Shown here piece after piece: positions 3,001-27,257 of a stretch of 64,000 bases of DNA. Positions within the stretch are counted from its first letter, which is position 1, and each line of letters starts with the position of its first letter. The stretch covers positions 4,270,886-4,334,885 of the forward strand of contig NC_088789.1 of assembly GCF_949628265.1 (NCBI RefSeq), in the 5' to 3' direction. Source of the stretch: Cloeon dipterum. Its lineage: Eukaryota; Arthropoda; Insecta; Ephemeroptera; Baetidae. The notes under the pieces were generated by a model, which was not told the DNA's origin, did not search any database, and saw nothing but the letters and a program-made list of their open reading frames with translations. A program made the position numbers and the translations under genes.

Positions 3001-6000
3001 AGCAGGTAAAACAGTCTTGTTTAGAGACGAGCGTTTGTTTACATTACTCTGATTGCCGAATAATTGTGAGACATACCACATAGTGGATTAGTATTGAAAA
3101 GTCGGGCTGACAACGGCCAGTTAGGTAGCTTGGTGGGATTTTGCCTGGCCTAAATTAAAAAAATCCTTCTAAATTGAAAGTAAATGTTTGAAAATGCCAA
3201 TAATGGAACCTTATTTTATTTCAGCGGCAAATGCAGTGCCACAACAAATCGCCCAAAAGGGCCGCAGGCCCAGCAATACCCTGCTTACTGCCCGGTTGAA
3301 TGCACCGGTGCAGCAGATCACCCCTCAAGCATCTCCTCAACAAAGTCTGCTCTCTCCTCAACCAGCGCGAATGTCAGCGTTGACTTCGCAACTAAATGCT
3401 CCTCCGGTGATCGCCCCTGCTCAGCCTTTTGTTAACTTTTCTTATGCGGTGCCTAACAAAATGGTTGCCACCCTACGCCCTGCCTTCACTCAGAACAGCC
3501 CGCAGCACAGACAGATGTCGCCTCAACAAACTCAGCAAATCAGCCAACCACTAACGCCTCAGCAACAACAATCTCCTCAAGTTCAAGTACAGCAGGAATC
3601 CAACCTGGGCATGGCCATGCCTGGGCTCTCTGCGCTCTTAGCAGGTAAATTGCTCGGTTTGTACAGCTCTCCATACTGTTATCAAATTTTTTCCTTAAAA
3701 ACAATATCAATTTTATTGTCTTGAAATTACTAGCGAAACAGTGCCAATGAAAATTAAATTGAACTAGAGGTGCTAGATGCATAATTTGAGGCGGCTAGCT
3801 GTCTTGCTGAGGCCGAATTTTAGCCTGGTGGCTGAGCAAATTCAAATTCAAATTTTGCTTTATTCATTAAGTCGGAATATTTACAATGACTTTTGAATAG
3901 TTGTCAAGATCAAATTAAAAATACATCATCACATTTTTGCAGCATTTTTGCTGGCATGGCTGACAGTTTTAAATAGATGAATAAAAAGAAAGAAATACAC
4001 ACGCGCAGGTTAATCTTTAAGTTTAAAAAAGCGAAAGACTGCTATACGCGGAAAATTAATTCTGGATGATTTAGAATCCTCTGCAGCTAATATTGTGATT
4101 GCGAATTTTGTTTTGGAGGTAAAGTACTACTTATGAGGTCTGTGGGTCAGAAGCAGCAGCTGTTCAGTGCGATAACGTTTTATTTAATTTTTCCTGGTAG
4201 AATTTTCACAAATAGCTAACCTTGCTGAATTATTTTTCTGCCCAGAGTGGAGCCATAACGTTAATTAAATTTTAAAAGTGAAGTTTGATGGTGTCAAAGA
4301 CCAATTAGCCACATGTATAGATTTAACCGTTTTTACTACATAATGAAATAAAATTTAATTAGTAGTTGTGGGCAGTTAATTTGTGACATCTGATTGTGAG
4401 CCAGGAAAAGTCAATTCTCTAGCATCTACAATTGATTCCTATTGCCAGGATGGTAAGGCAAAATGAAACATTCAGCACTGGGTTTCCTTTCAAAATTATT
4501 TTATGAAAATATGAAAGCCTGAAAATTGCGTGGAGAGCGCTAAAACTTCTATAAATATTATAAAATTGTGCGTATAAAATTCGTCTTTGACTTTAAATCG
4601 ATCCTCGTGCCAATTCAGGTACCCCATCTGCTGATAATCCGATGCCTAGTTCCACAAACAACACATCAGTGCTTCTTGAGAAACTCACAAGCCCAACTGT
4701 TGTTCCTGCTTACGTGGGACCTGCGCCCACTCCTCCGTCGCCAGTGGCTACCTCTCAAAGTCCTAAGCCAATCACCCCATCACCTATGTCAAGTCCCTCA
4801 ACCCTTTCGGTGTCATCAGTGTCAAACTTAAATTTGCACCTAGCCAGTCTGCAGGAAGCTATGGCGCGCGTTCCAGCTTTTCAGAATGTTCAGGTGAGTT
4901 TGCAAATCTACTCAATCAAAAACAGAAGTTGATCGCTCTTGTTTAATGGCAGGAGACTGAAATTATGGATGCATGGGAATTTGTGAGTTCTTGATTTCCT
5001 CTTTTGTTTGGCTTTTTTGAAATGATTGCTTAATCTGATATTTGGAAGCAGGTCGAATAATATGGTTTCCTTGCTTGCAGGTTTCCATACCAGGATTGCC
5101 AAATCCCATATCTCTCTCCCTTAATGTTTCTCAAAATGCTGTGCAACCTTCTGGTGTGATTGTCCCCACCTTGCCAATAGCAAACACGGCCACGCTGACC
5201 TCTCCCTCAGTGGTAGCGCCGGCTCCCTCTCCCCAGCCCATCACTACCCAACTCGGCACCTTGAATGTCAGCCCTGCCAACCATACCATGCTGCTAACAG
5301 CCAACACAATGGCTGGGACTGGTCAAGTTTTGTCTCTTCCTGTTGGTGAGTTCACTTATATACTTCATCTGACATGAATCCAATCTAATTCCATCGTGTT
5401 TCGTCTAATAGCTCAAGTTATGGCGCCAGCTGGAGTAAAGACTGCTCTAAGTCAAGGACTTAGGCCTACCAGTCCAATGGCTATCCCTCAGGTACATAAT
5501 TGAAAGTTTTGATTCTAATTGGTCTTGTTAGCAAAGGGAATGTAGCCAAAAATAAGAAAATTTATTAAAAAAATCTGGAATTTAAAATATATTCACTGTC
5601 TACAGATTTCAAATTTCAAAGTTCTTAAATGCGAAAACCGGGATATAAATATTGGCTAGATTTTAAAAATTTCTTTGGTTGTCCTAGAAAAACTTGGATG
5701 TCTTTATACAAAGCGTGTAATAATATGATAGTCAACATTTTAAACGCTATTTAAATTGATAAACTAATGCTATTACTCTACCTACCTTCTTGTATTAACA
5801 GCAGTGAGCAGTTATATTGTTGTTTATTCTTGCCAAAGTCATACATTTAAGATCAGAAAATAAAAATTACAGCAGCTAAAAATTCATAGCTAATAATTTA
5901 TTTTGAAGTTATTTGTCACACAAATAGTATTCCTTTGATTTAAGTTAACAGTTGTAACTGCTACATAAAATTTAGAATAAAAATCCGCTTAATGAGCTGT

Positions 6001-22532: not shown

Positions 22533-25500
22533 ATGGTCTTCGGTGGACAGATGCACCTGCGGCGAATTCTCCAGCAGCCACAGGTGAGCAACTGCGCGGG
22601 CGTTCTGCACGTCGAGGTGCGCTGCCCGGCGTGTCGAGTCTTCGGCCGAATTGGAGAGGTCGGCATTCGGCACGACCTTGGACAAAATACTTTTTTCACT
22701 TTGTCCGAGTTTAAACCGGACACACCTCCTGCTTATAACCAATGGCAGGTGCCCAAATTTTGAGACGTAAAAGCGGTCGGCGCTGACGTACGCGAATTTG
22801 CCCCCGGCTGTCCACATGTTGATATGCCGATGGCCGTAATTAAGGGATTTCCTTATAATTTGCAGATTGCTCGGCTATACCACATTAACGCCTCGAGATG
22901 GGTGTCCCAGCCGCCGTACCAGATTTTCAAGGTGGGTTTTTACTATTTGGCAAATACATAATATTTTGCAAGAAATATTTTTAAAATAAAAAATCTATTT
23001 TTTCAAAAGTACTCGGACACCGAGGTGACTTTGGCCGATCCAGAAAATCTGAAGCCGAAACCAGACGTGGGGTCGCTGCAGTTTGGCAAATTTTTCACCG
23101 ACCACATGATGCAGGTTGAGTTCAATAAGAAACAGGGTGGCTGGCAGACTCCAAAAATCATGCCTTTCCAAAGCATCGCACTGCATCCGGCTGCGAAGGT
23201 CTTCCACTATGCTGTTGAGGTATTTCGCATGCACATTATTTATATCTATGTCTCCAACGTGTCGTGTTTGTGCATATGATATGTTTAATATCAATGCGGT
23301 TTATTTATCCATTCGCCTTGAAGCGGTGGCTCTATTCTTCAGGGCTGCAAGCGTCAAGATGAATTATTGTGGCAGCAAAGAGACAGCTTGCTGTTACTCA
23401 ATCTGCAGCATTCGTTGCTCTGTTTCCTCTGTCTCGCTGCTCTCTCACACACACACGCACACTCGCTTTATTTTTAGAGCACCTTCGCGAATTAGCTGAC
23501 CCAACCGGCAGCTGTTTGCAAAACTGATTTGCAAAATCTTATTTTTATCTCTTTTGTGCATCTGCCAATGCCTCATGGGCGAATCGCAGTGCTCTGCTGT
23601 CCATACGACGCGGAATCAGGGCTATTTTTATGGTTGCATCTATTTTTGTTTCGGCGTAACCACGGTAACTGCAATGCGTACTAAGCTCTAATAGTCATCT
23701 CGTCTCACGTTGGTTGTCATTGCCAATTCAACTCGTGAAGACCATGAGGTCAAATCAATAGACGTGCAATCGCATCCATCATGAGCACTTGAAAATGCTT
23801 GAATGCAACCGACGTCATTAAATTTGCAGCACTCGCTCGTCGGCTATTGTTCCATAATTCCAGCCCCCTCATTATCAGTTACACACTCTACGTTTCCTCT
23901 GACGTTGCAATAATTCTTTTGAGTAAAGCTTTCGGCACACAAGTTGGTTTGTTCTGCGGTGGGTTATGGTTTTTCACGCAGCTCTGTTGTTTATTCTACA
24001 ATTACAGCAGATAATTAAATAGGCACACAAGTGACAAATTTCCTATAAATTTATTTTTGGTTGTTTTCTTATAACGTGTTGCATACGTTAATTGGCTGAA
24101 AACTGGATTTGACAGGTAAATTATAAAAAAAGGATATTTTACTTTTATTTTTGTAATTTAATTATTTGTTCCTTCTACTTTCTTTCTGTGCGAAATGAAG
24201 CGAAAGGAACGGAGCCGCGATTTGTACTATAGATTTGCGGGAATTAAATAATCTGTCATCATCCAAAAGTTATTTAAACATTATTCGTTCTTTATTAATC
24301 ACGCAATGTATTTTTAACTGCCTTAATTTTCACGCTTATTGTCTCTGTTCTAAATCTAAATCGGACTAAATGGAGATAGTAGAAGGAATAGATACGTATT
24401 ACAAAAAAAACATCCTTTCTTTTAATAATTTACGTTTCAAACCCAGTCTTCAGCCAATTAACTATTACATACAACGTCATACATGATAAATGTTGTGGTT
24501 AAGTTGTATGGAGTTTGCTTATCTTCATTTTGTATTGAAATTCCGGACATTTCCTTACACATTTGAATTTAATTTAAGTGAAGAACTAAATGAATCTACT
24601 TGGTGTGGATTTTTTTAATAGAAAAACTGTCTGGACAGCAGATATTTCGGCCCCTCAGGCCTCATCAGCAGCATTCGCCTTCTTAAACAAGAGTGCAGAA
24701 TTGACTTCAGGGGATTCTTTTAAACGATCGCCTGCAATCCTTGCTTTGCTCAGCACAAATCAAGAAAGTGACGAAATCTTGCGAAAGCCCGACATTTAAG
24801 AAGGCACTGCTGTTAAGGCCTTAAGGCGTTTTTTGCTTTACATGAACTTAAAGCTGCCAATCAAAAATCCGCAAAGAGTATATATAGCCATCGTGTCAAT
24901 TTTCACTTAGTATTATTAATTAATTTAAAATGGGGAAAATACTTAAATTGGCAAAGCAAATAATATGATTAAATTATTAATATACTTTCGTCCAGAGAGC
25001 TTGTAATATCAGTTGGACCCAGTTGAAGAGCTGGTGATTTTATTTCAGTGATAGAATTGTGACACTCATTCAAAAACTGCAACGATCAGCAGTGTGGCCT
25101 CTTCTATTCGCATCGTCTCGCGGAATTTGAGTTTGCGTCGACGTACTTTTTGATCCACGTTTCTTCAATGATATTGTGAGGTCTAAGGTGCATTATTTTT
25201 ATGAAGTTGAACAAAATAATCGCTTTTGATCTAATTGTCAATAGCAAAGTAAATATATCAAGAGGTGTCAATCCTGTGACCATGAAAAGAACGAATTCCG
25301 TTTATTATTTGCAACGGTTACATGAACTGTGACCCTTTATCTTAATTTATGCATGGAATATTGCATCGCGAGTTGTGTAATTTCTAACGTTTCAAAGATT
25401 GATAAATTTGGACTGTCACATCAGGGGTAATTCTCCAAATACTGAAAAATCGTTAGTTATTAATTGCTCTAGAGCTAATTTTTGAAGACTTTAGGAACTA

Positions 25501-27257
25501 TGTGCCACTATTTTAAAGAACTTAAACTTTTCAATTCTTGGTTCAAAATATTTTCCTTTAAAATTTGGCGAATCGTAAAAAATGCGTCGTCAGGAAGGTG
25601 TGAACATGAACACGCGATTTTTATCACAAAGATAAGGTTGTCGTTAAAGATGTAAAAGTGGATCGACCTTTTTATCAGGCCTATACGCTTAAGTATAATA
25701 AATTCTTAATCACCTCAATTAATACAATTGTTTGGTATATTCTGTTTTAACAGTTATTTGAAGGAATGAAAGCCTACAGAGGCAAAGACGACAAGATCCG
25801 CATTTTCCGTCCAGACCGTAACATGGAGCGCATGAACGTGTCCGCCATGAGGTCCGAGCTTCCCATTTTCGACGGGGAAGAGCTCACTAAGTGCATTTGC
25901 CGACTGATCCAAATCGACCAAGAGTGGGTGCCCCATTCTATGTCTTCCAGTCTCTACATCCGCCCCACCATGATCGGAATTGATGTGAGAAAGCCCCTGT
26001 GAAAAATGTTCACTTCACTGACTAAACCCTTCCGCAGCCCACCCTAGGAGTCTCGTCCTCCGACAACGCTCTGCTATTTGTGATTTTGTGCCCTGTTGGT
26101 CCATACTTCCCGGGCGGCTTCAAGCCGGTTTCGCTGCTGGCCGATCCCAGGTTCACGAGAGCTTGGCCAGGAGGATGCGGAGACCGGAAAATGGGCTCCA
26201 ATTATGCTCCCACCATCAGAGTACAGGTATGCAAATTGGGAAAGGAAATTAACAGGCTCTGATGATACCTCTCCGCAGGCTGAAGCTCTTGGCCTTGGTC
26301 TGCAACAGGTCTTGTGGCTCTTCGGCGATGATCATCAGCTTACAGAAGTAGGCACCATGAATATATTTGTTCTGATGTTGAATGAAAAAGGAGGTATGGC
26401 CAAAAATTATTTCTGCATGATCTTAAATTAATTGAATCTGTATAGTGCGAAAATTACTAAGTATTTTTTGTTCAAATGAATGGGTATTAATTTTTAAAGG
26501 CATGATAAAGAGCAGACTGTCTAAAATACCCAAAACTGTCTAATTTAACTGTGAAGACTTTTATGCGGCTAAAATTTTGAGCAACATTCTTCCATGATCC
26601 TTGAAATAAGCACTGAAATGTGCAAGACAAAAATTATTTCTTGTTAAGTTGTACCACAGAGTATATTGGGAAACACAATAGAAGTGCAATCACAGTGAAT
26701 TATACCTTCAACCTTTTGAACGCATTTCTTTGTCGGCTAAAAAAACTTTTTATCAATTTTTTATAAAAATTCGTTCCACTGGTATTTTATGAGTTCCAAT
26801 ATTTTTTGATACAAGTCCTTTTTAAATTAAATCCGAACAATATCTTGTCTACAGAAAAAGTACTGGTGACACCTCCGCTTGACGGCCTGATCTTGCCTGG
26901 AATCACGAGACAGTCAATTATTGAGCTTTCCCAGGAGTGGGGCGAATTCGCAGTTGAAGAGCGCAAAATCACAATGCCCGAAGTGCAGCAACTCCTGCAC
27001 GAAAAGAGAGTGAGTCCATTTAACAAATCAACGTGCAGTTGTAAACCTGGTCCTCTGTACAGTTGCTGGAGCTGTTCGGCGCTGGAACTGCTTGCGTGGT
27101 GTGTCCCGTGTCGTCGATTTTATACCAGGGGCAGACCCTCAAAATTCCGACCATGGCGCACAAATTGCCTGTGCATCAGCGCATCCTGAAAACGCTCACT
27201 GATATTCAGTACGGCGAAGTGGATCATCCGTGGGCCCTGCGAATCGACCAAGCCTAA
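22533..27257 (+). CDS. Bcat: Branched-chain amino acid aminotransferase, mitochondrial
   Basis: Exons 22533-22583, 22866-22931, 23010-23219, 25754-25984, 26038-26226, 26279-26393, 26855-27009, 27063-27257; 403 codons plus stop. It is a class IV PLP-dependent transaminase converting leucine, isoleucine and valine to their 2-oxo acids with 2-oxoglutarate (family knowledge). The catalytic lysine is residue 237 in [11 protein letters not shown]. The redox-sensitive CXXC of mammalian BCATs is present as CVVC (residues 350-353, in [14 protein letters not shown]). Also diagnostic are [22 protein letters not shown] and [11 protein letters not shown]. The N-terminus ([23 protein letters not shown]) is basic and free of acidic residues, as in a mitochondrial presequence; a second in-frame ATG six codons on could also serve. 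Intron 3 (23220-25753) is 2.5 kb and holds the ribozyme candidate. Confidence 0.95.
24615..24690 (-). ncRNA. Hammerhead ribozyme candidate (type I, short stem III)
   Basis: Read on the minus strand inside Bcat intron 3. The conserved core CUGAUGA is at 24668-24662. Stem II is GGCC (24661-24658), loop UGAGG, GGCC (24652-24649). GAAA follows at 24648-24645. A short stem III of three pairs (A24645-U24635, U24644-G24636, A24643-U24637) has a five-base loop. The canonical cleavage triplet GUC is at 24636-24634, cutting before C24633. Stem I starts with CAG (24633-24631) pairing with CUG (24671-24669); after an internal loop, AAGAA on the 5' side can pair with UUUUCU on the 3' side. All invariant core positions are intact. 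Minimal type I hammerheads with very short stem III are known from Penelope-like retroelements (established knowledge); assignment to them is inference. Confidence 0.6.
24788..24825 (+). repeat. Inverted, decayed partner of the hammerhead region
   Basis: The sequence at 24795-24825 on the plus strand repeats, in opposite orientation, the region around the hammerhead: an exact 11-base match TTTAAGAAGGC (24795-24805, against 24687-24677), then CTGCTG, GGCC and GGCG in the same order but without the intact CUGAUGA and GAAA. The two arms are about 110 bp apart. This suggests a mobile element flanked by two opposed hammerhead-like ends, one now dead. Confidence 0.45.

What the first reader, a model, noticed from the sequence alone, without database searches (positions are those of the whole stretch)
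24615..24690. Complete hammerhead ribozyme core antisense in a Bcat intron
Seen on the minus strand: CUGAUGA, a GGCC/GGCC stem II with five-base loop, GAAA, a three-pair stem III and a canonical GUC cleavage site, with stem I starting C-G, A-U, G-C. All invariant core bases are present in the right order within about 40 nt, which is unlikely by chance. Penelope-like retroelements carry minimal type I hammerheads with short stem III (established). Here no reverse transcriptase frame is visible nearby, so it is either a solo remnant or a small non-autonomous ribozyme element.
Basis: partly seen in the sequence, partly recalled or inferred. Interest (0 to 1): 0.75.

Follow-up and report, generated by a model that had tools for sequence, protein, structure and literature searches.

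The report
Dispersed ribozyme element, Penelope-like insertion pattern
The short self-cutting-RNA motif in this intron is a worn copy of a small repeat scattered through the genome, and that repeat often sits in the DNA as the same mirror-image pairs as a Penelope-like jumping gene of the same genome, which suggests that machinery of that kind spread it.

Summary
The motif is there as described: minus strand, C3 at 24668, cleavage site 24634|24633, invariant core complete, but stems I and III have only 3 pairs each. It is not isolated: the genome has at least 112 places within 3 mismatches of a 34-nt core pattern, against 0 for the reversed pattern. The consensus of the copies completes a type I hammerhead: stems of 6, 4 and 4 bp, cleavage triplet GUA. 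Two flank-defined subfamily consensuses differ at 0 of 47 ribozyme positions but 33 of 171 flank positions, though many copies were found through their core. Against it: no Rfam hammerhead hit, no covariation beyond shuffles, no activity test. The host repeat is non-coding. Its copies lie singly or as head-to-head pairs: 35 junctions, all different, 0 tail-to-tail. A Penelope-like element of the same genome shows 25 head-to-head pairs, 0 tail-to-tail and 0 tandem in 67 matches. Best reading: a decayed copy of a non-autonomous hammerhead retroelement, probably moved by Penelope-type machinery. The ribozyme ancestry is well supported; activity and mobilisation are inferred.

The parts
24631..24671 (-). 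Hammerhead core with stems I (3 bp), II (4 bp), III (3 bp)
   Evidence: sequence; descriptor match, C3 at 24668
24633..24634 (-). Predicted cleavage site, between C17 (24634) and C1.1 (24633), triplet GUC
   Evidence: position follows from the known hammerhead rule (recalled)
24562..24794 (-). Detected extent of the repeat copy that carries the motif (element model positions about 280-583)
   Evidence: a left inverted arm further upstream was not significant (29 of 500 shuffles as high)
3986..4275 (+). Second copy of the same repeat in the window, a head-to-head pair (3986-4070 minus, 4066-4275 plus); its hammerhead core at 4124-4170 is degraded
22962..23276 (+). Open stretch with BCAT-like coding sequence, one side of the intron that holds the motif
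   Evidence: motifs recognised by eye; limits are stop codons, not exon ends
25751..25999 (+). Open stretch with BCAT-like coding sequence, other side of the intron
   Evidence: same caution

Best explanation
The site is a worn copy of an old, dispersed, non-coding retroelement whose RNA carries a type I hammerhead ribozyme, most likely copied into the genome by Penelope-type machinery. Proposed cycle: the element is transcribed; its RNA folds at the hammerhead and can cut itself some 150-180 nt before its 3' end; a Penelope-like protein cuts both strands at a target and starts reverse transcription on both, so that two 5'-truncated copies meet head to head with their 3' ends outward, or a single copy results. 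Shown: the motif, the family, the consensus ribozyme, head-to-head pairs with a different junction each time, and the same pattern for a Penelope-like element of this genome. Inferred: cleavage, mobilisation by a Penelope-like protein, reverse transcription from both strands, and any role of cleavage in insertion. The copy in the window is probably inert or weakly active.
For: Core complete in the window copy. 112 against 0 matches of a 34-nt core pattern. Consensus of the copies adds pairs missing in the window copy: stems 6, 4, 4 bp; 23 of 54 gapless cores keep every invariant base. The element consensus meets a strict 5-4-3 bp descriptor, calculated expectation 0.0005 per Mb of consensus. 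Flank-defined subfamily consensuses: 0 of 47 differences in the ribozyme, 5 of 80 left, 28 of 91 right. Variable 5' ends. 35 head-to-head junctions, 35 distinct, 0 tail-to-tail. Penelope-like element: 25 head-to-head pairs, 0 tail-to-tail, 0 tandem in 67 matches. In print: head-to-head is called the most frequently observed inverted arrangement in rotifer Penelope elements (PMC3846280, passages); an Anolis Penelope protein cuts and extends both target strands (PMC11167929, passages).
Against: No Rfam hammerhead match in the window, in 20 copies at E up to 10 or in one core alone; a genome search with RF00163 found nothing, but its control rang nowhere, so it says little. Pair counts equal shuffles; RNAalifold predicts no pairs. 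The lowest-energy fold of the isolated consensus is not the hammerhead (-16.2 against -12.6 kcal/mol; window copy -11.3 against -3.5). In 39 rows not selected by core the ribozyme is no more conserved (0.883) than the 47 nt to its left (0.886). The repeat and the Penelope-like element share no detectable sequence; the repeat's copies are diverged, the Penelope copies partly identical. LINE families were not examined for the same arrangement. The rotifer paper favours self-priming rather than two-strand priming, and the Anolis element is reported in tandem arrays.
Confidence: 0.62

Rival explanations
1. The repeat is the 3' region of an extinct autonomous Penelope-like element; all copies are 5'-truncated pieces of it and there never was a separate non-autonomous element.
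For: Copies are 5'-truncated at many points; the apparent common 5' end may only be the truncation of the probe; one weak match to the Penelope protein's last residues lies near one copy (L003, E 0.02).
Against: No shared sequence upstream of the repeat among the long copies L049, L060 and L052, and no other Penelope protein match with E below 0.5 in the loci examined.
Confidence: 0.18
2. The hammerhead likeness is accidental: the conserved stretch serves something else in the repeat (for example binding or initiation), and the RNA does not cut itself.
For: No Rfam match, no covariation, conservation not confined to the ribozyme, alternative fold preferred for the isolated strand.
Against: All invariant positions and 14 of 14 pairs are met by the consensus, calculated expectation 0.0005 per Mb of consensus for a 5-4-3 descriptor; subfamily consensuses keep the ribozyme.
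Confidence: 0.12
3. It is a non-autonomous DNA transposon with inverted ends, the ribozyme lying near one end.
For: Many copies have inverted arms of about 50-200 nt.
Against: All 35 head-to-head junctions differ, whereas a transposon multiplying as a unit would repeat its junctions; 73 of 118 ribozyme-bearing matches have no inverted partner.
Confidence: 0.03
4. It is an animal retrozyme that spreads through small RNA circles.
For: Small, non-coding, with a type I hammerhead; retrozyme-like repeats are reported in insects and other invertebrates (PMC7229834, passages).
Against: Retrozymes are described as tandem repeats of about 300 bp with a hammerhead in each unit; the 4 of 118 matches scored as tandem are each one copy split by a gap, and copies are not bounded by the cleavage site.
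Confidence: 0.05

Closest known systems
Minimal type I hammerheads of Penelope-like elements and Terminons, and dispersed minimal hammerheads of animal genomes (reviewed in PMC7761336, passages seen; the primary 2014 paper is not held)
   Same: Type I order of parts, short closed stem III, dispersed in non-coding DNA; the review names Penelope-like elements as likely movers of non-autonomous ribozyme elements
   Different: Those are described as usually lacking a proper helix III; here the consensus helix III has 4 bp. Here one defined repeat family carries the motif, singly or head to head
Animal non-LTR retrozymes (PMC7229834, passages seen)
   Same: Small non-coding repeat with a type I hammerhead
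   Different: Retrozymes are tandem repeats with a hammerhead per unit; no tandem units were seen here
Penelope-like elements of Adineta vaga (PMC3846280) and Anolis (PMC11167929), passages seen
   Same: Head-to-head inverted copies (rotifer); a protein that cuts and extends both target strands and assists a hammerhead in its own RNA (Anolis)
   Different: Those encode reverse transcriptase and endonuclease; in Anolis the hammerhead overlaps the start codon and was not needed for insertion in vitro

Membership tests
Hammerhead ribozyme, type I | Invariant core bases in order, three helices, H at position 17 (rules recalled) | tested here: met
   Window copy; consensus
Hammerhead ribozyme, type I | Match to the Rfam hammerhead models | tested here: not met
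   uninformative because its control rang nowhere
Hammerhead ribozyme, type I | Paired changes in the stems between relatives | tested here: not met
   Counts equal shuffles on 54 cores; copies of one genome only
Hammerhead ribozyme, type I | Self-cleavage | not testable with these tools
   Needs a bench test
Animal retrozyme | Tandem units, each with a hammerhead | tested here: not met
Animal retrozyme | Small circular RNA | not testable with these tools
   No RNA data held
Penelope-like element | Reverse transcriptase with or without GIY-YIG frame in the element | tested here: not met
   Element model about 0.7 kb without such a frame; tblastn with the host's Penelope-like protein gave only L003, E 0.02
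Penelope-like element (as mover) | Head-to-head insertion pattern | tested here: met
   Repeat; Penelope-like element; LINEs not tested
Inverted-repeat DNA transposon | Copies share the same internal structure between inverted ends | tested here: not met
   35 of 35 junctions distinct
SINE | Head derived from tRNA, 7SL or 5S RNA | tested here: not met
   ARAGORN 0 genes in 6 loci with long copies; no such Rfam match in 20 loci

The most novel reading that the evidence does not exclude
A non-autonomous ribozyme element family that was copied by Penelope-type machinery through reverse transcription from both strands of the target, so that the genome itself records the partnership between ribozyme elements and Penelope elements that has so far been a proposal; some copies may even start at the ribozyme's own cut (8 of 70 junction ends lie within 5 nt of it, about 3 expected if even, with a biased choice of loci).
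Probability: 0.4. Interest if true: 0.68.

Novelty: new variant of a known kind. Interest (0 to 1): 0.5.

Why it matters
A review calls the in vivo role of hammerheads in Penelope elements a mystery and names Penelope elements as likely, unproven movers of animal ribozyme elements (PMC7761336, passages). A dispersed ribozyme family with the same head-to-head insertion pattern as a Penelope-like element of the same genome makes that testable: does a Penelope protein copy this RNA, does it assist the ribozyme as reported for Anolis (PMC11167929, passages), and does cleavage decide where copies begin? It also shows a hammerhead family with over a hundred close copies of its core that the Rfam models did not report in the loci examined.

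Tried and rejected
Inverted-repeat DNA transposon: first favoured, then rejected because every junction differs. Retrozyme in tandem: no tandem units. A peptide in the conserved stretch: read by eye only, not pursued. A common 5' end from the L060 probe: withdrawn, since it may be L060's own truncation; the long copies L049, L060 and L052 share nothing further upstream. Left arm of the window copy: not significant. Covariation as proof: absent. Insertions starting at the cleavage site: weak and biased, not claimed. Sequence shared upstream by L064 and L069: pieces at 80-91% identity, taken as an old duplication, no shared long frame recognised. Reverse transcriptase survey: 150 of 551 candidates scored, too many to single out a partner. 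The core in viral and prokaryote collections: 0 exact matches. Genome search with RF00163: nothing, control uninformative. The species was not identified.

Literature searches: hammerhead ribozyme with retrozyme and metazoan, MITE and transposon, terminal inverted repeat, short interspersed and insect; hammerhead with Penelope-like and inverted, with Penelope-like, non-autonomous and arthropod; Penelope-like with head-to-head; Penelope, inverted orientation, retroelement, truncated; one on head-to-head retrotransposition. I saw no listing that names such a family; only titles and starts of abstracts were seen there. Passages were read in four papers (abstract and outline of one); none was read whole.

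Full report
On the minus strand, 24671-24631 holds a full type I hammerhead core with triplet GUC and cleavage site 24634|24633. Stem I has 3 pairs; stem III has 3, one of them U-G. The motif lies antisense between two plus-strand stretches that read as BCAT (recognised by eye). A descriptor with stems of 3, 4 and 3 bp finds it alone in the window; that descriptor and a looser one found nothing in 40 Mb of simulated sequence. By calculation a 3-4-3 match is expected 0.0002 times in the window but 0.6 times in the whole genome. Rfam reports no hammerhead in the window.

It belongs to a family. In the host genome (190 Mb, 10 contigs) a search with 341 nt around the motif found 15 other places, 35-49 nt long, 88-95% identical. 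A loose core pattern gave 777 matches against 147 for the reversed pattern; a 34-nt pattern with up to 3 mismatches gave 112 against 0. Longer probes found copies over up to about 300 nt, 70-90% identical (lower bounds, 40 candidates scored each). Eighty more places were fetched as short stretches.

The copies point to a complete ribozyme. Their consensus is GUACUG CUGAUGA GGCC UGCGG GGCC GAA ACAG CUG CUGU A CAGUAC: stem I 6 bp, stem II 4 bp, stem III 4 bp with a 3-nt loop, triplet GUA. Pairs missing from the window copy are present. The element consensus meets a strict 5-4-3 descriptor, with a calculated expectation of 0.0005 per Mb of consensus, both strands. Of 134 aligned rows 54 have a gapless core; the other 80, the 24.6 kb window copy among them, were dropped. 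Of the 54, 23 keep every invariant base.

Was the ribozyme kept while the element evolved? Clustering 75 rows by flanks alone gave groups of 46 and 24 rows and 5 single rows. The two consensuses agree at all 47 ribozyme positions and differ at 5 of 80 on the left and 28 of 91 on the right. A third group was made by me from copies with A in loop II, with six members dropped because their flanks looked like the other groups; it has 16 sequences, the window copy among them, although the flank clustering had put the window copy with the 46. Its consensus differs from the 46-row group at 3 of 47 ribozyme positions (loop II, by definition; H17, A to C; the outermost stem I pair) and at 16 of 79 and 11 of 43 aligned flank positions. 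This fits selection on the ribozyme in the master copies. A caution: most of these copies were found through their core, which favours the result.

Among individual copies there is no such signal. Pair counts equal the shuffles (83.6% paired against 83.7%), and RNAalifold predicts no pairs. In 39 rows found with a whole-element probe the ribozyme is as conserved (0.883) as the 47 nt on its left (0.886) and slightly more than those on its right (0.856); invariant core bases stand at 0.908, stem bases at 0.883, loop bases at 0.856. That is what decay after insertion would give. Rfam misses 20 further loci at E up to 10 and one core alone. The isolated strand has a lower-energy fold than the hammerhead.

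The repeat looks non-coding and about 0.5-0.6 kb in its longest copies; its 5' end is not settled. It has no tRNA head (6 loci). Copies are 5'-truncated at many points. Of 118 ribozyme-bearing matches in 103 sources (the window copy counted twice, as L001), 73 are single and 41, in 29 loci, have a head-to-head partner with 3' ends outward; none is tail-to-tail; the 4 scored as tandem are each one copy split by a gap. Adding 20 loci picked with a 3'-arm probe, and so enriched for pairs, there are 35 abutting head-to-head junctions, all different, and 0 tail-to-tail. A DNA transposon multiplying as a unit would repeat its junctions, so these pairs form anew at insertion.

The same genome has a Penelope-like element: a 654-aa frame with a reverse transcriptase domain (E 2e-14) and, near its end, a weak GIY-YIG match (E 0.08 in this copy, scored over the family's cut-off). 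The name rests on that order of domains. Two copies span the whole 2.3 kb probe, and the seven longest matches are listed at 100% identity. Its 67 listed matches (40 of 360 candidates scored) make 25 head-to-head pairs, 17 unpaired matches, 0 tail-to-tail and 0 tandem; two of the pairs, on contig C1, have the same junction and are probably one duplicated locus. In 19 of 25 the arms overlap by 1-7 nt.

In print, head-to-head is called the most frequently observed inverted arrangement of rotifer Penelope elements, though the authors favour self-priming (PMC3846280, passages). An Anolis Penelope protein cuts and extends both target strands and assists its own hammerhead, which was not needed for insertion in vitro; that element lies in tandem arrays (PMC11167929, passages). 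The shared pattern is my ground for saying that Penelope-type machinery moved the ribozyme repeat. It is not proof: the two share no detectable sequence, the copies differ in age, and other retroelements were not examined for the same pattern.

Conclusion. The finding is real and not isolated: a decayed copy of an old, dispersed, non-autonomous hammerhead element with a Penelope-type insertion pattern. The kind is known: hammerheads in animal retroelements, and dispersed minimal ones, are in print. A defined family in the head-to-head form with a 4-bp helix III is a variant that I did not see in the searches listed. Catalysis, expression and the identity of the mover remain open.

Noticed in passing
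L161:972-2936 and places listed (C2, C3, C1 and others): A Penelope-like element with an open 654-aa frame and several copies at 100% identity, suggesting recent activity; nearly all its listed copies share one 3' end and many are head-to-head pairs.
   Followed up: partly
L161, about 3110-3150: By eye, a hammerhead-like stretch near the 3' end of the Penelope-like element whose core departs at two positions.
   Followed up: no
window 24087-24183 and 24374-24462: Inverted repeat with arms of about 90-100 nt, 72-78% complementary, in the same intron next to the motif.
   Followed up: no
L015:2733-2926: A palindromic stretch that scores with several microRNA precursor families below their cut-offs; probably another inverted-repeat element.
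   Followed up: no
L030, L043 and G000:C1:8017095-8017147: The loose core pattern also picks up another repeated sequence (CTGATGAATAGATCT-like) without a hammerhead stem II, part of the 777 matches.
   Followed up: no
L003:798-917, minus: Weak match to the last residues of the Penelope-like protein (37.5% over 40 aa, E 0.02) some 600 nt from a ribozyme copy.
   Followed up: no
L085 and L108 (C4, 5.6 kb apart): Two copies with nearly the same downstream sequence, so a local duplication.
   Followed up: no
L064 and L069: Share pieces at 80-91% identity over more than 1 kb upstream of the element, apparently an old duplication that carried the element along.
   Followed up: partly
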